This document shows, piece by piece, positions 25,954 through 35,069 of a DNA stretch of 64,000 bases. The notes below the pieces were generated by a model. The model was not told the DNA's origin, did no database searches, and saw only the letters and a program-made list of their open reading frames with translations. Location of the stretch: NCBI RefSeq assembly GCF_001467615.1, contig NZ_LNYA01000030.1, positions 1-64,000 on the forward strand. The letters are read 5' to 3'. A program made the translations under genes and the position numbers. The DNA comes from Legionella erythra. Lineage in GTDB: Bacteria > Pseudomonadota > Gammaproteobacteria > Legionellales > Legionellaceae. Numbering within the stretch: the first letter of the stretch is position 1; every line of letters starts with the position of its first letter.

Positions 25954-25990
25954 TGCAGGTTGGCCTGGGCCCGACCTGCACTTGTTTTTC
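25954..25990 (+). terminator. Hairpin plus T-run upstream of the ankyrin gene
   Basis: Arms TGCAGGTTGG (25954-25963) and CCGACCTGCA (25971-25980, one G-U pair) are followed by CTTGTTTTTC. It has the shape of an intrinsic terminator on the plus strand, yet lies about 60 bp before the ankyrin gene with no plus-strand gene directly ahead. It could be a leader hairpin or a copy of a GCAGGTTGG-type intergenic palindrome. Confidence 0.45.
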
Positions 25991-26050
25991 TTAGTGATCT
26001 GCTCGCTATTTTTTATTATTACAACGCCACAAACAAACAAGGAAACCGCC

Positions 26051-27337
26051 ATGTCATTGGAGACTAATAATTTTATAGAAGAGCTCCTGGAGCTCAGAAT
26101 CGAATCGGATTCGATTCCATCGGCTCTCAGCAATGAAGTCTATCAATTGCTCCATAAGAAATTAAAATTATTCAGTCCGTTCTGGATTAGGGAAAACTGG
26201 CAACTGCAGGCCCTTCTCGGTGATGAGGCAACGTATAACGATTTACACAAAAAAGACCATAACGGTGTGAATATGGCGCATTATGCCGCGCTTTCCGGTC
26301 ATGTGAAGAGGCTTCATGCGGTATACGAGCGTAATCCTGCTCTTTTTGAGCAAAAAGACAATTACGGTCAATCGGCTTGGCATTATGCCGTTTATTATTC
26401 CGATAATCCAGAGGCCTTAAATTGGATGAAGCAATACTGTCCTAACTTGTCAGACTCAGCCGATTCATTGGGTCAAACACTAGGTCATCATGCTGCGCTC
26501 GCGGGTAATCTTGATGTCTTAAACCTGATAAAGCAGCACTGCCCCGATCAATTAACAGCTGCAGACCAATGGGGTTCGACGCTGGCGCATTATGCAGCAG
26601 AATCAGGTAATTTTGATGTTTTAAACTGGATAAATCAGCATTGTCCCAGGCTCTTGGACTCAGTGGACAAATGGGGTCGGACATTGGCGCATTATGGCGT
26701 GCGCTCACTTAGCCAGGAGGTTCTGAAATGGATTGCACGGAATTGTCCTCAATTACTGACTTTAAATGACAGGGATGGGCAGTCAATTGTCCGTGATGCA
26801 GCGCTTTGCGGTAATGCAGACCTGTTTAACTTGGCTTTAGCGCTGAGCGATAATCGGCATGAAGTAAATTTTGCTGGCTTGGGGATAACTCAATTTAAAC
26901 TATTGGCTATGCCCACCTTAAACGAAGCGCTTAAAACGAATACGACGTTGACCGACATCCGTGGCATAGACTCAAGCGCATGGGCAGAGTTAAAGCCGAT
27001 GCTGGATGCCAATAAACTTAGAATCCAAAATGAATTAAAGGAAATAATCAACACGTTCACTTTGTTGATTTATGAGAGAAACTCACAAGGCGACCGGTGT
27101 TTACCCAAGGATATTTTACTCACTCTGTTTATGCAGGCGGTGGAGTCGGTGACTGACCGCATGTCAAAACAGGATATTGCCGCACAGTTTAAAAAAATAG
27201 TTGATAATACGGAGAACTATAAGATCAAACGGGTTCTGCAACAACGTCAAGGGTTTGTTCTCTTTTTTAATATGCAAGCCGGGCAAGTGGACGGCGCTGC
27301 CATGCAGGAGTCTCAGGTCTATTCGCCGCAGATTTAA
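26051..27337 (+). CDS. Ankyrin-repeat protein, candidate effector
   Basis: A 428-residue cytoplasmic-type protein; the ATG at 26051 (MSLETNNF) is preferred because AAGGAAACC precedes it, while the longer reading adds a spurious hydrophobic leader. Six ankyrin-like repeats run from about residue 70 to 270. Each has the core G-x-T/S-x-A/G-H-x-A-x-x-x-x-x-x-D/V-L-x-x-I, seen in GVNMAHYAALSGH, GQTLGHHAALAGN, GSTLAHYAAESGN and GRTLAHYGVRS. A recurring N/Q-W-I/M-x-Q-H/Y-C-P ending marks the spacers. The C-terminal ~150 residues are helical without a known domain. Ankyrin proteins are common Dot/Icm substrates in Legionella; secretion here is inference. Confidence 0.8.
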   Translation: MSLETNNFIEELLELRIESDSIPSALSNEVYQLLHKKLKLFSPFWIRENWQLQALLGDEATYNDLHKKDHNGVNMAHYAALSGHVKRLHAVYERNPALFEQKDNYGQSAWHYAVYYSDNPEALNWMKQYCPNLSDSADSLGQTLGHHAALAGNLDVLNLIKQHCPDQLTAADQWGSTLAHYAAESGNFDVLNWINQHCPRLLDSVDKWGRTLAHYGVRSLSQEVLKWIARNCPQLLTLNDRDGQSIVRDAALCGNADLFNLALALSDNRHEVNFAGLGITQFKLLAMPTLNEALKTNTTLTDIRGIDSSAWAELKPMLDANKLRIQNELKEIINTFTLLIYERNSQGDRCLPKDILLTLFMQAVESVTDRMSKQDIAAQFKKIVDNTENYKIKRVLQQRQGFVLFFNMQAGQVDGAAMQESQVYSPQI

Positions 27338-27611: not shown

Positions 27612-28871
27612 ATGATTAACCCGTTAACCTACACCCCAAAAGGCGACAAGCAAAATTCCGACTATTTCAATGAATACCGCATGAAAATTTATGAGCGGCG
27701 TCAAACGGTGGGTTTGCAGGATTTATATGGCGATATGTGTGCGGTCATCATTCAGGTTCAAACCGGCGATGCCCTTAATTACTTGAAAGAGCTCTATATC
27801 ATGACGCCATATCGCTACAAAGCCAGTTATATCAGCGATACCCATAAAATATATTGCCTGGTCAATACCACGGAGTCGCCTGTTTTGATTATCCTTGAGC
27901 CCTTGGATCCCAATTTTCGTGATGACATTACCCGCATCAATAAAATGTACCCCAATTCCCGGGAAAAATTTAATGCGCGTTATGTTGGTGAACTGTTTAA
28001 AACCAAGGATAAGCAGGAAACGCGAGAAATTCTTACCGCGCAGGGGTTTCATTTCTGTGAGCCTGAAACCACTGAAAATAAATTTTACTGCAACGGCAAT
28101 TTTGCATTTACCAAACTGTCGGATTATTCATTTAATGCCTTAGGCTATACCGATAAAGACCTGCTTGACTTTGAAAGCTTGAATCTGGGGCAGCCTTTTA
28201 GCCTGACCAAAGCCCAGCAGAAAGTGCTTGATAACATGGATCAATTAAGTCTGGACAAGGGCATTAAACCCTTGTTAAAAGGCATTGATCACATGGCCAC
28301 CCGCATTCTCGCAGGGGAGCGGGAAGATGCAATTTTAGAATTATTATGCCTGTCCAATTATTATTTCTGGGGCGCTTATAATATCAGCGACATGAATTCT
28401 TCCACCAATGTCAATCGCACCGCGCATGGTCATGATATTAAATCGCCCGCCAAGGTGTTTACGGCCAATAATACCCCTTTTATGGTTAATTCGTTCGAGG
28501 GCTTGCCAATGCCCACGGAGAACTTTGTTAGAAATTATGGCCGGCGTATGCACCATATTGCCATTGAAGTGGTTGATGGCGATCACCCGAGCGGCCTTAA
28601 AAACATAGATTACGTGGTCAATACCCTGCAAAACGAGCTGTCCATTCCTTTTTTGGCCCAGGTTTTCGGATCCTGCGGCACGGAGCCGGATTTAAAACAA
28701 ATTTTTTCCAAACACTCCCCTTACTCGATTCTTATAACGGAATACGTCGAACGCTGCCATCAGTTTGACGGGTTTTTTACCCGTGAAAATGTCGCGGCTT
28801 TAACAGAAGCCGCAAGCCTGGATGAGACCGTGCAGCAGCACAGTAAAAAGCATGGTTTGGTAGGGGATTAA
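27612..28871 (+). CDS. VOC-superfamily dioxygenase, divergent HPPD-like
   Basis: A 419-residue protein whose C-terminal half resembles 4-hydroxyphenylpyruvate dioxygenase. GIDHMATRI places a metal ligand at His227, RMHHIAIEVVDG gives the second at His314/315, and ILITEYVERC gives the third at Glu377, the usual 2-His-1-Glu iron set, followed by a HQFDGFFTRENVAALTEA tail like the HPPD C-terminus (GNFKALFEAIE). The N-terminal half is poorly conserved. Substrate may not be 4-hydroxyphenylpyruvate, because residues around the site differ and the gene sits away from tyrosine catabolism genes. It is followed after 78 bp by the trio at 28950-31649 on the same strand. Start supported by AGGAGTCAG. Confidence 0.72.
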   Translation: MINPLTYTPKGDKQNSDYFNEYRMKIYERRQTVGLQDLYGDMCAVIIQVQTGDALNYLKELYIMTPYRYKASYISDTHKIYCLVNTTESPVLIILEPLDPNFRDDITRINKMYPNSREKFNARYVGELFKTKDKQETREILTAQGFHFCEPETTENKFYCNGNFAFTKLSDYSFNALGYTDKDLLDFESLNLGQPFSLTKAQQKVLDNMDQLSLDKGIKPLLKGIDHMATRILAGEREDAILELLCLSNYYFWGAYNISDMNSSTNVNRTAHGHDIKSPAKVFTANNTPFMVNSFEGLPMPTENFVRNYGRRMHHIAIEVVDGDHPSGLKNIDYVVNTLQNELSIPFLAQVFGSCGTEPDLKQIFSKHSPYSILITEYVERCHQFDGFFTRENVAALTEAASLDETVQQHSKKHGLVGD

Positions 28872-28949: not shown

Positions 28950-29300
28950 ATGACTTCGCACATTGATGATACACCCAGTGAGCCACGCTCATCGTTTAAA
29001 GAGCGATATCAAGAGGTAAAACCCCTGACAGATACAGATAAGCTGATTATTGAGTTGGAAAGACAGCTTAAGCATGTGGAAAGTAAAGGCAAACCCGGGG
29101 GGATGCATGAGCAGAAGGCTAATGTGATTCGAGCGGCTATAGATATGTTAAATGGAAATGGCTCTCTTGATGACCTACGCAACACGATAACAGAAAATCC
29201 TCGTTATAATGAAGCTACTTTCAGGAGCACTACCGAGTCGTTGGTAAACCGGGCTATCACGATGCAACAGGATATAGAAAGCGGCATGAAACCCAAATGA
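28950..29300 (+). CDS. Small helical protein of unknown function
   Basis: A 116-residue, highly charged, predicted helical protein without Cys or signal peptide. CTGGAG sits before the ATG. The C-terminal half (VIRAAIDMLNGNGSLDDLR, then ENPRYNEATF) resembles a short helical module seen in Legionella effector-like proteins; the coiled-coil protein at 31663 has a similar SNPRYSEANT stretch. Its stop overlaps the start of the RtcB-like gene (ATGA), so the two are translationally coupled. It could be a partner, chaperone or substrate of the next two proteins; a peptide precursor role is possible but it lacks a classic leader/core layout. Confidence 0.6.
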   Translation: MTSHIDDTPSEPRSSFKERYQEVKPLTDTDKLIIELERQLKHVESKGKPGGMHEQKANVIRAAIDMLNGNGSLDDLRNTITENPRYNEATFRSTTESLVNRAITMQQDIESGMKPK

Positions 29301-30580
29301 AAAATGACCCCATCAGGATTTATGCTCTTCCTGAACAGCAGTCTTATTTTTATCGACCTGAGTTGTGGGATACTGGCCGTCACATAATGACTTTTCTTAG
29401 CGATGCTCATGACGTGCATTTGTTTCCCGAGGCCACGCTTAAAATGAATAAAATCCCGAATGGCTTGTTAGTCAGGAGTAAGAAACTACAGACTTTGTTG
29501 ATGCCTGCAATATTACGCGACCCGGGTTGCGGCTTTTTGATTTTTCGCCTTCACAATCTCCGAGGAGAGCCCACACAGGCCATTGCTAAAACACTGCTGC
29601 AATTTTGCCAGCATTTAGAGATGGATGAAGCCTATTTTTCCCTGTCACACTGGCGTGACGTCTTATGCCAGGGGGTTGACCAATACTCCGCAGGAAAAGA
29701 GCCCTTTTCCAATACCCGTTTTGATCTGGATCCTGACGCCTTGTATCTTGAGCTGGATAAAGATGAACTGAATCGGGATTTGAGGCGAGTCAGCAATACC
29801 ATTGAGCTTAAAACCTATGCGCCTGCATCAGAAAAATCACAAGAGGCTGAAGAGTTGTTGGGTTTTATCCATACCGGCAGTGAGTATTTTCCTGCTGTAC
29901 TTCATGAAGAATGGGCGAGTTTTGCTGCCACGTTTTGCTATATGCATCAACTGGCTTCTGATGAGCAGATTGCCCAAGGACTTTTCGGTATTCCTGCCGA
30001 CGATGAAAAGGGGTATCAATACCAGCAGGCCCTTAAAGCCGTGATGAATTATTGTTTATTCAAGCGGTATTGGTTGTTTCATCAGTTACGTGATTTTTTA
30101 GCTGAACGATTCAATATCATGAGTACGATTATGAGCGATCATTGCCACGCTGGGCTCTTTGAGGTTAAAGAAAACAATGGGGATTATTTATTGCAATCCC
30201 GAGGCGTGCAATTGTTATCCCATCCGCATTTGCCGTATTTGATCGCTGGGCAGAAAGAGTCGGAATCCTATCTGTTCAATACAAACGCAACAACCCTGGC
30301 ATACTGCGGCCATGGCACCAGCTACGCTTTCGATGCGGCAAAGAATTACGGCCAATTGCTGGGCCAGCAGGATGCTTTGCATTGTTTACGGCAATTGCAG
30401 CATGTCATAGCCAATACCGGGATTGAAACGGAAAAATGTTTGCCTTATACCTACAACATCCGTCAGCAGAAACAATACCTTGAGCAGTTTAATCTTAAAT
30501 TTATTCGGCTCTATCCCTTATTCAATTATCAAGGCCCTTATTTGCGGAGTGTCAGTCATGTCAATCAATCCACAGCATGA
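29297..30580 (+). CDS. Divergent RtcB-like protein
   Basis: A 427-residue protein that follows the RtcB (3'-phosphate RNA ligase) sequence layout in order. DVHLFPEAT (39-47) matches the PDVHxGKG region. LMPAILRDPGCGF (68-80) matches the DIGCG motif with metal-binding Cys78. DHCHAGLFEV (281-290) matches the xCHNxxxxE segment. QSRGV (300-304) matches HRKGA. YLIAGQKESESYLF matches IPGSMGxxSYI. CGHGTSY (337-343) matches SHGAGR, and LYPLFNYQG (405-413) matches the RPLxxxKG ending. Several ligase residues are changed (the GGNHF-equivalent reads TGSEYF), so ligation activity is doubtful. Start overlaps the previous stop by 4 bp; the radical SAM gene starts inside its last 23 bp. Confidence 0.65.
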   Translation: MKNDPIRIYALPEQQSYFYRPELWDTGRHIMTFLSDAHDVHLFPEATLKMNKIPNGLLVRSKKLQTLLMPAILRDPGCGFLIFRLHNLRGEPTQAIAKTLLQFCQHLEMDEAYFSLSHWRDVLCQGVDQYSAGKEPFSNTRFDLDPDALYLELDKDELNRDLRRVSNTIELKTYAPASEKSQEAEELLGFIHTGSEYFPAVLHEEWASFAATFCYMHQLASDEQIAQGLFGIPADDEKGYQYQQALKAVMNYCLFKRYWLFHQLRDFLAERFNIMSTIMSDHCHAGLFEVKENNGDYLLQSRGVQLLSHPHLPYLIAGQKESESYLFNTNATTLAYCGHGTSYAFDAAKNYGQLLGQQDALHCLRQLQHVIANTGIETEKCLPYTYNIRQQKQYLEQFNLKFIRLYPLFNYQGPYLRSVSHVNQSTA

Positions 30581-31649
30581 GGCATTGCCCATTCTGTTTG
30601 GTGATTTGGAAACCAGTTATTCCACTTGGCTTACGCTAACGAATTTATGCAATATTCATTGCAAATATTGCTTTAATTACATTTCCCATTGCAATGAGCA
30701 TATGCCGTCCAAACTGGCTGTTGGTATTTTAAAGGCACAACTATTGGCCTTAAATAAGGACACAAATGAAACGTATTCTGTCATTTATTTCGGGGGTGAA
30801 CCCACCCTGAATCAGGATGCATTGCTTGGGTCGATTGATTTTTTACTGGAAAATGATGTGCTTTGCCGCCAATGCCTGATGACCAATGGCGTATTTAACC
30901 AGAAACTCCTTGATCAATTAATCAATAAAAACATTGACTTCCAGGTATCCTTTGACGGCGTGTCCAACAATTTGCGCTTCAATAAAAATTTAACGAAACG
31001 CATCGCTAACGAGACCATTACTACCATAAAAAAACTCACGGACCATCATGAGTATGTCACCGTGCGTGCCACGATTCATGCTGATAATGTAAACAATATG
31101 TCAGATTTGGTTCGATTCTGCGCTGCCTATGGTGTATCGCGTTTGCAGTGTGCTCCCATTTGTGATTTTGGTGATGCCAAAGCGAATTTAGTTCGGCAAC
31201 CGGAACTGCATGCTTATATGGCTTCGTTTGAGGAGGCAATCCATTTAGCCTCTGAGTATGGTATTGACATGGAGGTCAAAGGCGCGGCTCACTTGCAGGC
31301 GATGACAAGGCACAAAATGAAAATTCCGCTGGTATGGCTTCCGGATGGGCAGGTGGCAATGACCATTACGTATGCTTCATCCGCAATAAAAGGCGCTGAA
31401 AAAATCATCATCGGGCGATACAGTGAGGAAGAGGAAGCGATTATTTTAGATCAGGATAAAGTGGATAAACTGAAAAGCAATTACCAAAAAAACCGCCAAA
31501 AATACTGCGAGAATTGTCCCATTCGCGAACTATGCAGCGGCACGGTCCAATTCACCCCGTTTGCAACGGATACCTTTATTCCTGAGCGCGACCAGTATTT
31601 TTGTCAGTTAGCCGTGCGTATGGTTCAACAATTTCCTGTGGTTGCCTAA
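30558..31649 (+). CDS. Radical SAM/SPASM-type enzyme
   Basis: A 363-residue radical SAM protein. The 4Fe-4S motif CNIHCKYC is at Cys31, Cys35 and Cys38, followed by FNY and a YFGGEPTLN SAM-binding stretch. A C-terminal cysteine set (Cys317, Cys320, Cys326, Cys349; C-x2-C-x5-C-x22-C) suggests a SPASM or twitch domain with an auxiliary cluster, typical of peptide- or protein-modifying enzymes such as anaerobic sulphatase maturases and RiPP maturases. I start it at 30558, where GGAG precedes the ATG; the longer frame overlaps the RtcB-like gene with implausible residues. It is the last gene of the coupled trio, so its substrate may be one of the upstream products. Confidence 0.8.
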   Translation: MSINPQHEALPILFGDLETSYSTWLTLTNLCNIHCKYCFNYISHCNEHMPSKLAVGILKAQLLALNKDTNETYSVIYFGGEPTLNQDALLGSIDFLLENDVLCRQCLMTNGVFNQKLLDQLINKNIDFQVSFDGVSNNLRFNKNLTKRIANETITTIKKLTDHHEYVTVRATIHADNVNNMSDLVRFCAAYGVSRLQCAPICDFGDAKANLVRQPELHAYMASFEEAIHLASEYGIDMEVKGAAHLQAMTRHKMKIPLVWLPDGQVAMTITYASSAIKGAEKIIIGRYSEEEEAIILDQDKVDKLKSNYQKNRQKYCENCPIRELCSGTVQFTPFATDTFIPERDQYFCQLAVRMVQQFPVVA

Positions 31650-31662
31650 ATGATCACCGTCC

Positions 31663-32868
31663 TCAAGAAGGTGCGGTCTGGGGAATATCAATTGCGTCTA
31701 AATCCCTTAATAAATCATCCAGTTTTTTGTGCGAATCAGTGCGAGGCGCTTTAAAAAAAGGCAAGCAAGTGCCCACGGTGCCGTGGACGCGGATCACCGC
31801 GTCAGCTATGTATTTTTTTACGCCGCGATGTTTATCTAATTCTGTGTGTGCATCCAGGATAAGCTGGGCATATTTTGTTCTTAAAGTGGCCGCATCTGCA
31901 ATTTTGGACTCATCAAAATAGTCGCGGCGTAACTGTTGCAAGGTCTTGCATAAATTATCAGCCACGGTGTTGGCTTCTGAGTAACGCGGATTGCTTTTTG
32001 CTTTGGCTTCAAGCTGTTCTTGTTTGACGCGCATTTTTTCCACAGCCCAATCAAACGTAACGGCAGCTAACCATTCTTTATTCTCACCAATGATATTATC
32101 CCGAAACGCCTGAATGAGTTTTTTCTTTGAGTATTTTTTAGCTTCAGTTTTTTTCTTCTGGGCTTCCTGGCTTTCTTTGAGGATTTGCTGGTACTGCTTT
32201 CTAATCTCAGGGTTGGTTTTTGCGGATTGAATATGCATTTTTACCTGCTGTTTGCATTGCATATAGTGGGCATCGGTTGCCTTGATTAACTCACAAATCC
32301 TATCCAGGTGTTGCAATCTGCGTAGGAAAGCAGGGTAGCTGAGTTGCGATGCACTGAGAGTAGAATAATACTTTTCCAGACACCGTGTCATCGCACTGGC
32401 TAGCGCATGGGCAGCGCTTTGGGCTAAGCGCAGATCATAATCAAACCGCGTTACGCCCAGGATAAATCCCTTAAGTTCCTGGCCATTGGAAATCGTTTTT
32501 AAATTCTCGCCGACCCATTCGGCATTATTGTCAAAAATGGTGTTTAGGTTAGTCTCTTCGAATTTTAGATTAGTCGATAATTTGGCAAGGAGGCGGTTTG
32601 CTTTCTCCATGGCCCGAGTTAAGTCCGGGATAGACAGGGCTTCTTCAAATTGTTTGATAAACAAATCCAGTTCACGATGGTGCAATCCTTCAATTTCTCT
32701 TGCTTTATTCAGGCTATCTATCTGACTCAGTGAGACTTCATGAATAGTGGGCGGGTAAATCAGTTCCTGTAAACCCCAGTGGGTAACGCGGTTGATGGTT
32801 TTGAGTTTTGCAACCGCATTGACTTTCGTTTTTAATGCCTTCAATCCGTCGCCAAGGGATTCTTTCAT
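31663..32868 (-). CDS. Coiled-coil protein, candidate effector
   Basis: A 401-residue, mostly helical protein with Lys/Glu-rich coiled-coil segments (about 205-260), no signal peptide and no recognised catalytic domain. Near the C-terminus it carries a SNPRYSEAN stretch and a later module VIRVHGTVGTCLPFFKAPRTDSHKKLDDLL; similar tails (LPFF..., TDSxKKL) occur in Legionella effector-like proteins as far as I recall. The gene converges on the radical SAM gene with 13 bp between stops. Dot/Icm export is inference. Start at 32868 follows ACAGGA. Confidence 0.65.
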   Translation of the reverse strand: MKESLGDGLKALKTKVNAVAKLKTINRVTHWGLQELIYPPTIHEVSLSQIDSLNKAREIEGLHHRELDLFIKQFEEALSIPDLTRAMEKANRLLAKLSTNLKFEETNLNTIFDNNAEWVGENLKTISNGQELKGFILGVTRFDYDLRLAQSAAHALASAMTRCLEKYYSTLSASQLSYPAFLRRLQHLDRICELIKATDAHYMQCKQQVKMHIQSAKTNPEIRKQYQQILKESQEAQKKKTEAKKYSKKKLIQAFRDNIIGENKEWLAAVTFDWAVEKMRVKQEQLEAKAKSNPRYSEANTVADNLCKTLQQLRRDYFDESKIADAATLRTKYAQLILDAHTELDKHRGVKKYIADAVIRVHGTVGTCLPFFKAPRTDSHKKLDDLLRDLDAIDIPQTAPS

Positions 32869-32956: not shown

Positions 32957-34039
32957 TCAGGCATTTTTAGCAAAATGTTCAAAAAGAATAATCAGACTGA
33001 CGATCAGAATAAATTTTAAACCCATAGCCACCGGGTGTGTTTTAGAAAGGGCTGCCAGGTAAGCAAAGGGGTGGCGTTTAATGAGGGCTTTTAATACGAT
33101 ACGGGTCACATGGCTTGGTGTGCCGCGATGAGGGATTTCATGAATGGTGATATTGGGATTAAAATTTCCTTCGAGTATAAACCAGGTTGAGTTTTCAAAA
33201 GAACGGTTGATGTCTTCACACAAGACATCAAATCCTACAAACTCAAGGCCCAGGGTTTTAGCCGCCTTGACCAGCAAGCGCGCATTGTTGGGCAGAATGG
33301 TTTTGCCATGTGACCAAATATCACCCCCACGGCCGGTATTGACCGTATGGCACAATTGGATGATTTGCCCCGCTTTCGGAATACTCTCAAGGCTTAGGTT
33401 TTGCTCCTTAAGGCATTGTTGATATTCCTGATCAACAACCAGGGGAGAAATGGTTAATTTCTCGCTTAGCTTGTCACGCGCCACATTCGCGTGCTCGATT
33501 AATTGGGCAATGGTGTGTTGGCCATCGCCAACCACGCGGGCGGCAAAGCGCTCAACGACGCCAATAACCCGGTTTTTAAACACGAGAACGCGATATTCTT
33601 TAAGACCCTGATGGAATTCTTCTACCTGCATGGATTTATGGGTTTTTAGCTGTTCCTGCAGATAATGGTAAAGGGTTTCCATGTCCTTGATGTTACAGAG
33701 CACGTCACGTCCACGTACAGTATCCTGAGCCGGTTTGGCGACGAGTGGAAAATTAAAATGCTCTAATTTTTGCAAGAGGCGTTCTCGATTAAAGGTGGTT
33801 GCGAGAAACAGAGCGGCCTTGGGGACAGGAAAACCTGCTGCATCGAGCAGATGATTAGCAAGGTATTTGTGTTTGGCGAGGTAGATACTCGCGCCCTGAT
33901 TAAAGGGTGTGATTGCCGCATGGAAAAAATAGGAGCGTCTGCCGAGTTTAATGGTCAAGACATTCAACTCAGGTTGAAAAAAGGCGGGTAATCCCAACGC
34001 GTGTGCTGTTTCTGCATAAATACGGATGTTTTTGTCCAT
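32957..34039 (-). CDS. ATP-grasp ligase, cyanophycin-synthetase-like, membrane anchored
   Basis: A 360-residue ATP-grasp protein. The ATP-binding fold shows NHLLDAAGFPVPKA (pre-grasp), FPLVAKPAQDTVRGRDV (Lys-containing strand and Gly-rich loop), MQVEEFHQGLKEYRVLVF (hinge and Arg) and late metal ligands in FVGFDVLCEDI and ILEGNFNPN. The middle motif LCHTVNTGRGGDIWSHG corresponds to the HxxxxGGD segment of cyanophycin synthetase and GshF-type C-terminal domains. A hydrophobic segment near the C-terminus (about 337-354) could anchor it to the inner membrane. These enzymes join a carboxylate to an amine; substrate unknown. It follows the radical SAM region but on the other strand. Confidence 0.8.
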   Translation of the reverse strand: MDKNIRIYAETAHALGLPAFFQPELNVLTIKLGRRSYFFHAAITPFNQGASIYLAKHKYLANHLLDAAGFPVPKAALFLATTFNRERLLQKLEHFNFPLVAKPAQDTVRGRDVLCNIKDMETLYHYLQEQLKTHKSMQVEEFHQGLKEYRVLVFKNRVIGVVERFAARVVGDGQHTIAQLIEHANVARDKLSEKLTISPLVVDQEYQQCLKEQNLSLESIPKAGQIIQLCHTVNTGRGGDIWSHGKTILPNNARLLVKAAKTLGLEFVGFDVLCEDINRSFENSTWFILEGNFNPNITIHEIPHRGTPSHVTRIVLKALIKRHPFAYLAALSKTHPVAMGLKFILIVSLIILFEHFAKNA

Positions 34040-34223: not shown

Positions 34224-35069
34224 ATGAAAATGCCACTTGTAGCGTCACTGATTTTTTTATCCTTTTCAGGTTTTGCCAACATAGCGGAGCTGCCTAAAGA
34301 AGAAATGGTTGCTGCCGGGTTAAGCGAGCATACCGTTGTCAGACAATACACCAATTTTCAGGACGTTGCAGATCATAAACAATGGTTCGCCCGCCATCAA
34401 CCTTACCCCACTCAGGTCGTCCGGGTGCAGGGGGATCTTGGTGGGGAGCGTCATTGCGAGGCAGTCCTGAAGGAAATTGATGATTTTTTTGTTTCCAGAA
34501 TCACGCATGAAAAATTTTTCTACAATACGCTGGTGTTTTGCGGCTATGATCCAAAAACAGAGTATGCGGTCCATTTTGCCATCAACAGTTATTTTGATCC
34601 TTTAAATGATGGTGCCATTTATTATCTTGAAAATTACCTGGGTTCACACAATGGCCAGGATTTACTGGGTGTGCCTTTTGAGGTGGAGTCGGCAATCGGT
34701 GTGGCGGTATCCTTAAATATTGATGCCGGGGTTTTGAATCACCGCAATGACAGTACCTTGATTCGTTATCTGCATGACAATCAGAGCCATTTTTTTGCCA
34801 GCAACTATGATTTGATGAAAGAGTTAATTCAGGATATTTATGAGCGTTTTTATTCAAATGACCCCGATCTTATCCTGCCTTTTCTCAATCGCTGGTTTTA
34901 TTCGTATGCAGATAGGACCTATGATAGCATTTTAAGCCGCGTCAATTACGTGGAGCTGCAGCCGGAACGCTTGTTTTTGATGGATAAGGAGCCGAAGGTC
35001 TATACGTCGCCTTTGAGAATGTATTTTGCTCATCACTGTGCCAAATACGAGAATAAACATTGTTTATAA
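34224..35069 (+). CDS. Secreted protein of unknown function
   Basis: A 281-residue protein with a clean signal peptide (MKMPLVASLIFLSFSGFA, cleavage after about residue 18-20) and a preceding AAAGGAATTA ribosome-binding site. The mature part has no domain that I recognise. It contains a few Cys residues in CEAVLKEIDD, TLVFCGYD and HHCAKYENKHC, which could form disulphides. Secretion by type II secretion is possible. It is followed after 48 bp by a methyltransferase gene, but a shared role is not evident. Confidence 0.65.
   Translation: MKMPLVASLIFLSFSGFANIAELPKEEMVAAGLSEHTVVRQYTNFQDVADHKQWFARHQPYPTQVVRVQGDLGGERHCEAVLKEIDDFFVSRITHEKFFYNTLVFCGYDPKTEYAVHFAINSYFDPLNDGAIYYLENYLGSHNGQDLLGVPFEVESAIGVAVSLNIDAGVLNHRNDSTLIRYLHDNQSHFFASNYDLMKELIQDIYERFYSNDPDLILPFLNRWFYSYADRTYDSILSRVNYVELQPERLFLMDKEPKVYTSPLRMYFAHHCAKYENKHCL

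What the first reader, a model, noticed from the sequence alone, without database searches (positions are those of the whole stretch)
28950..31649. Coupled trio: small helical protein, degenerate RtcB-like protein and radical SAM/SPASM enzyme
Seen in the sequence: three genes overlap end to start (4 bp, then 23 bp), so they are made together. The middle protein follows the RtcB motif order (DVHL, DPGCG with Cys78, DHCH, GHGTSY, PLFNYQG) but has lost several catalytic motifs. The last has a CxxxCxxC cluster and a C-terminal C-x2-C-x5-C-x22-C set. I do not know an established system pairing a decayed RtcB fold with a SPASM-type radical SAM enzyme. It could be an RNA- or protein-modifying module in which the RtcB fold binds the substrate.
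Basis: partly seen in the sequence, partly recalled or inferred. Interest (0 to 1): 0.78.

Follow-up and report, generated by a model that had tools for sequence, protein, structure and literature searches.

The report
Legionella RtcB-fold and radical-SAM gene trio
A compact three-gene cassette, seen in a few Legionella species with different neighbours, joins a small helical protein, a remodelled relative of the RNA-joining enzyme RtcB and an iron-sulfur radical enzyme; it looks like an uncharacterised protein-modifying unit, but nothing here shows what it makes.

Summary

'Decayed' is half right. In MAFFT alignments the equivalents of D95, C98, H234, H329 and nucleophile H404 are kept. The Arg of HxGSRG and HGAGR and the C-terminal Lys are replaced, and H203 is probably lost. 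The radical SAM enzyme keeps only an Aux II-type cysteine set. The small protein is a helical domain seen in other Legionellaceae proteins plus a trio-specific N-terminus, without cysteine.

Best reading: a protein- or peptide-maturation cassette with the small protein as substrate (confidence 0.42). Substrate and chemistry are inferred. The paper library held no paper with RtcB, radical SAM and SPASM together.

The parts
28950..29300 (+). Small protein, 116 aa: trio-specific N-terminus MTSHIDD, then a helical domain (about residues 24-110) also found inside other Legionellaceae proteins; proposed substrate
29297..30580 (+). RtcB-fold protein, 427 aa; D75, C78, H192, H284, H339 correspond to D95, C98, H234, H329, H404 of P. 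horikoshii RtcB
30558..31649 (+). Radical SAM enzyme, 363 aa (ATG start), CX3CX2C at 31/35/38 and Aux II-type C317/C320/C326/C349, no Aux I cysteines of SPASM
29297..29300 (+). 4-base overlap of the first two genes
30558..30580 (+). 23-base overlap of the last two genes

Best explanation
A self-contained, laterally moved protein- or peptide-maturation cassette. Shown: three genes kept together in four Legionellaceae genomes; an RtcB fold with most of the ligand and nucleophile residues; a radical SAM enzyme with a reduced SPASM-like tail; a small cysteine-free protein with an invariant N-terminal stretch (M, T, H, I, D at 1, 2, 4, 5, 7). Inferred: the small protein is the substrate, its helical domain (residues about 24-110) serving for recognition and its N-terminus for modification; the radical SAM enzyme makes a bond or desaturation there by hydrogen abstraction; the RtcB-fold protein binds one metal and a nucleotide and, through the His of GHGTSY (H339), activates or nucleotidylates the same substrate before or after the radical step.
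For: Same order and tight spacing in 4 of 4 loci; RtcB-like and radical SAM genes found in the same 4 genomes, and the small protein over its whole length in those 4; only the trio is common to the four neighbourhoods. The RtcB-like and radical SAM trees agree with each other and both reject the grouping by genus (p-AU 0.001 and 0.0002, 1000 replicates only), so these two moved together. The best whole-length NCBIfam relatives of the radical SAM enzyme are peptide or protein maturases (PapB 68.2 bits, YhhB, DynA, the tungsten-enzyme maturase). Ligand and nucleophile equivalents invariant in 4 of 4.
Against: No NCBIfam match shown is near its cut-off (PapB 68.2 against 340), and the matches include lipid and cofactor enzymes (Tes, MoaA, NirJ). 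The radical SAM core begins at about residue 24, leaving no room for an N-terminal recognition domain. The small protein is large for a precursor, and its domain occurs elsewhere without the two enzymes. Its tree does not agree with the other two: the shared topology is disfavoured (p-AU 0.011) and nothing is resolved. RtcB enzymes are known for RNA work only (recalled).
Confidence: 0.42

Rival explanations
1. RNA end-modifying or repair module: the RtcB-like protein still binds or joins RNA ends and the radical SAM enzyme modifies the RNA.
For: RtcB fold; D95, C98, H234, H329, H404 and Y451 equivalents kept. The window genome and G111 have no other PF01139 match, so the protein does not merely duplicate a resident RtcB there.
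Against: L. parisiensis (G066) and L. lytica (G062) also carry a canonical RtcB. Arg of HxGSRG became Glu, N of HN became Ala, Arg of HGAGR became Tyr, the C-terminal Lys became Gln or His in 4 of 4. Among the listed NCBIfam relatives of the radical SAM enzyme I saw no RNA modifier (capped list).
Confidence: 0.2
2. The radical SAM enzyme is a maturase of the RtcB-like enzyme itself, as anaerobic sulfatase maturase is for sulfatase; the small protein is an adaptor or chaperone.
For: SPASM enzymes often act on proteins encoded beside them (passage of PMC5715301); the enzyme-maturase families for sulfatase and the tungsten oxidoreductase match 4 of 4 members. The RtcB-like protein has extra invariant cysteines (C104, C253, C283).
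Against: No conserved maturation motif is known to me in RtcB; the invariant trio-specific N-terminus of the small protein stays unexplained.
Confidence: 0.2
3. One reading: the RtcB fold is catalytically dead and serves as a substrate-binding partner of the radical SAM enzyme, in place of an RRE domain.
For: No room for an RRE in the radical SAM enzyme; several RtcB motif residues replaced in 4 of 4.
Against: The metal-ligand and nucleophile positions are the invariant ones, which a pure binding fold would not need.
Confidence: 0.15

Closest known systems
RtcB (PF01139), e.g. P. horikoshii RtcB 4dwq
   Different: 14% identity; window protein under the Pfam cut-off; R238, N330, R408, K480 positions and the Lys of RKGA replaced in 4 of 4; H203 probably Thr; neighbours are not RNA genes
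SPASM radical SAM peptide maturases (PapB, YhhB, DynA)
   Same: CX3CX2C core, C-terminal CX2CX5C and last Cys; best NCBIfam scores
   Different: All far under the cut-offs; Aux I cysteines absent (4 of 7 SPASM cysteines); substrate candidate has no Cys; no RRE-sized N-terminus
Twitch radical SAM enzymes (SkfB, BtrN, MoaA)
   Same: One auxiliary cluster expected
   Different: Twitch keeps the first half of SPASM and lacks CX2CX5CX3C (passages); here the reverse set is kept
Recurrent helical domain of other Legionellaceae proteins
   Same: Residues 24-110 of the small protein match it (alignment)
   Different: There mostly part of larger proteins; the N-terminus MTxHIxD is not in the aligned parts

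Membership tests
RtcB family (PF01139) | RtcB fold | tested here: met
RtcB family (PF01139) | Score over Pfam's curated cut-off | tested here: not met
   Window protein 24.4 bits against 27; two relatives pass at 35.1 and 27.5
RtcB family (PF01139) | Mn1 ligands C98, H234, H329 and nucleophile H404, plus D95 | tested here: met
   4 of 4 in MAFFT columns where 17 of 17 RtcBs carry the residue and invariant in A4. hmmalign of single members agreed only in part: D/C placed in 1 of 4, H234 in 3, H329 in 2 (Ala in the window protein), H404 in 2
RtcB family (PF01139) | Mn2 ligand H203 | tested here: inconclusive
   By eye N-T-(I/L)-E at 167-170 takes the place of N-H-x-x-E; neither MAFFT nor hmmalign placed it there; no His in that stretch in 4 of 4
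RtcB family (PF01139) | GTP-dependent 3'-phosphate/5'-OH RNA ligation | not testable with these tools
   Needs an assay
SPASM radical SAM enzymes | CX3CX2C radical SAM motif | tested here: met
   C31/C35/C38 invariant in 4 of 4; PF04055 40.4 bits over cut-off 29.5
SPASM radical SAM enzymes | Seven-cysteine motif CX9-15GX4C-gap-CX2CX5CX3C-gap-C | tested here: not met
   Only C317, C320, C326, C349; motif from PMC6231123 passages
Twitch domain | First half of SPASM kept, CX2CX5CX3C absent | tested here: not met
   The reverse (definition passages)
PapB ranthipeptide maturase | NCBIfam equivalog score; Cys-bearing precursor (recalled) | tested here: not met
   68.2 bits against 340; 0 Cys in 4 of 4 small proteins
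RiPP cassette | Small gene next to the modifying enzyme | tested here: met
   4 of 4 loci
RiPP cassette | Leader/core and modification shown | not testable with these tools
   Needs mass spectrometry
Viperin (pVip) | NCBIfam viperin cut-off | tested here: not met
   38.4 bits against 180; PADLOC pVip 42.1 bits, generic radical SAM core only

The most novel reading that the evidence does not exclude
An RtcB fold has left RNA and works as a metal-dependent nucleotidyl-transfer enzyme on a protein, in step with a radical SAM enzyme that carries only an Aux II-type cluster, both acting on a Legionella-specific helical domain: a new type of protein modification unit.
Probability: 0.27. Interest if true: 0.87.

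Novelty: new variant of a known kind. Interest (0 to 1): 0.62.

Why it matters
RtcB is treated as an RNA ligase family. A branch with the metal ligands and nucleophile kept, several other motif residues replaced, and a constant radical SAM and small-protein partner would be a case of that chemistry turned to another substrate, and would give a defined three-gene system in which to ask it. The Aux II-only cysteine set is the reverse of a Twitch domain and bears on what the auxiliary clusters of SPASM enzymes do. The candidate substrate uses a domain that other Legionellaceae proteins share.

Tried and rejected
Rejected: ranthipeptide or other thioether chemistry on the small protein (0 Cys in 4 of 4). 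Viperin-like antiviral enzyme (far under the NCBIfam cut-off, only the core matches). Duplicate of a resident RtcB as a general reading (no other PF01139 match in the window genome or G111). Phage or viral origin (no relative of the RtcB-like protein in the phage records; 67 pattern matches but no relative in viral contigs).

Led nowhere: hhalign with 18 RtcBs of the E. coli-type sub-group (Prob 0.2%, E 0.36; its motif filter had passed 24 of 42 loci). phmmer of the RtcB-like protein alone against PDB sequences (best E 0.039, a protein not of this family). The genome-contig scan by two short patterns gave one locus, L. parisiensis, so it is no census. Distant radical SAM relatives on two plasmids and in G209 had no RtcB-like or small-protein relative in the stretches read. 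PDB sequence search with the small-protein profile gave only weak matches (best E 0.012, TOM70). Promoter scan: 1 site against 6.9 expected. RtcB tree: the trio sits on a very long branch, placement not trusted. Papers: RtcB + radical SAM gave 5 listings, seen as a listing only, none on such a pairing by title; Legionella + radical SAM + RiPP + effector gave 2 listings; Legionella + SPASM domain gave 1 listing; the L. pneumophila effector atlas PMC11696984 does not hold the words RtcB or radical SAM in its main text (find).

Full report
Observation. The last gene is best read from the ATG at 30558 (363 aa); the mechanical ORF from TTG at 30423 is longer. The window belongs to a Legionellaceae genome: the next genes include a protein of the Lpg0189/NttE family of type II-secreted Legionella proteins.

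Active site. PMC10630183 (passages seen) gives P. horikoshii Mn1 ligands C98, H234, H329, Mn2 ligands D95, C98, H203, and nucleophile H404. In a MAFFT alignment of the 4 trio proteins with 17 RtcBs, D95, C98, H234, H329, H404 and Y451 columns carry the same residue in 4 of 4 and in 17 of 17; with 6 of those RtcBs the same residues come out invariant, D75, C78, H192, H284, H339, Y384 in window numbering. Replaced in 4 of 4: R238 by Glu, N330 by Ala, the Lys of RKGA by Arg, R408 by Tyr, K480 by Gln or His (the numbers R238, N330, R408, Y451 and K480 are recalled). H203 could not be placed: by eye, N167-T168-x-E170 takes the place of N202-H203-x-x-E206, the N and E being invariant in 4 of 4, but neither aligner put it there. 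hmmalign of single members agreed with the MAFFT columns only in part. So 'decayed' fits some motif residues, not the metal and nucleophile positions.

Radical SAM enzyme. It has the radical SAM core (PF04055 40.4 bits, over cut-off). In 4 of 4 members C31, C35, C38, C103, C188, C202, C317, C320, C326 and C349 are invariant. The SPASM motif is CX9-15GX4C-gap-CX2CX5CX3C-gap-C, and Twitch keeps its first half (PMC6231123 and PMC5715301, passages). Here only C-x2-C-x5-C and the last Cys remain; I recall these four as the Aux II ligands of anSME. That is the reverse of Twitch. NCBIfam relatives are mostly peptide or protein maturases, PapB first at 68.2 bits against a cut-off of 340, but lipid and cofactor enzymes are on the list too (25 of 53 rows shown). 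No RRE-sized N-terminus is present.

Small protein. 116-121 aa in the four loci, no Cys and no Trp. Its profile finds, besides the four, weaker partial matches so that 23 of 134 Legionellaceae genomes have one at E <= 0.1; the best of these are parts of larger proteins. The matching part is about residues 24-110; the N-terminus MTxHIxD, invariant at 1, 2, 4, 5 and 7 in the four, is not in the aligned parts of the others. A 122-aa stand-alone protein in G054 was aligned from position 1 but weakly (5.9e-5).

Distribution and transfer. RtcB-like: 4 of 143 family genomes (the same four with the profile), 1 of 369 class genomes, the window's own. Radical SAM: the same 4 of 134 at 1e-8, and in 339 class genomes the window's own plus a distant one, G209, at 1e-12. 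Plasmids: one record, the L. lytica plasmid pLlyPCM2298_1. GTDB 220 contigs by pattern: one, L. parisiensis. Phages and viral contigs: none. Metagenome contigs were not open to me. Within about 20 kb the four loci share the trio alone, apart from generic short-chain dehydrogenase matches of 26-29% between two of them. The RtcB-like and radical SAM trees both give ((window, L. parisiensis), (L. lytica, G111)) and reject the grouping by genus (p-AU 0.001 and 0.0002, with 1000 replicates, which the program calls too few). The small protein does not follow: it disfavours that tree (p-AU 0.011) and resolves nothing. So joint transfer is supported for two of the three genes.

Reading. A constant small gene with no other partner, a radical SAM enzyme nearest to maturases, and a conserved metal and nucleophile site in the RtcB fold are most simply read as a maturation cassette in which both enzymes act on the small protein. 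The substrate, the chemistry and the order of steps are inference. RNA work, maturation of the RtcB-like protein itself, and a dead binding fold remain open, with the odds given. Novelty: the library held no paper with RtcB, radical SAM and SPASM together, and the five with RtcB and radical SAM were not about a pairing by their titles. I rate it a new variant of a known kind (small protein plus radical SAM enzyme plus accessory enzyme) with an accessory fold that I do not know from such systems.

Noticed in passing
window 27612-28871 (+): 419-aa ORF ending 78 bases before the trio on the same strand; no Pfam or NCBIfam match at E <= 1, weak PDB match only. Its C-terminal third looks to me (by eye, recalled) like a VOC/HPPD-type protein. 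No counterpart in the ORFs around the other three trios.
   Followed up: partly
window 25982-27337 (+): Ankyrin-repeat protein (Pfam Ank_2 54.1 bits).
   Followed up: no
window 31663-32868 (-): 401-aa helical-looking protein with no match over a cut-off; not hit by the small-protein profile.
   Followed up: no
window 32957-34039 (-): 360-aa ATP-grasp protein resembling the middle of cyanophycin synthetase (191 bits against a cut-off of 850).
   Followed up: no
window 34224-35069 (+): Lpg0189/NttE family type II-secreted protein (404 bits).
   Followed up: no
L086:5575-5943 (-): Stand-alone 122-aa protein with weak similarity to the small protein, beside genes that look to me like parts of a secretion apparatus.
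   Followed up: no
L063, L064, L065, L066: A divergent RtcB sub-group with SADICCSM and HHGSR motifs in other Pseudomonadota.
   Followed up: no
G110:C1 and G138:C283: RtcB open frames split in two and three pieces in two Legionellaceae genomes.
   Followed up: no
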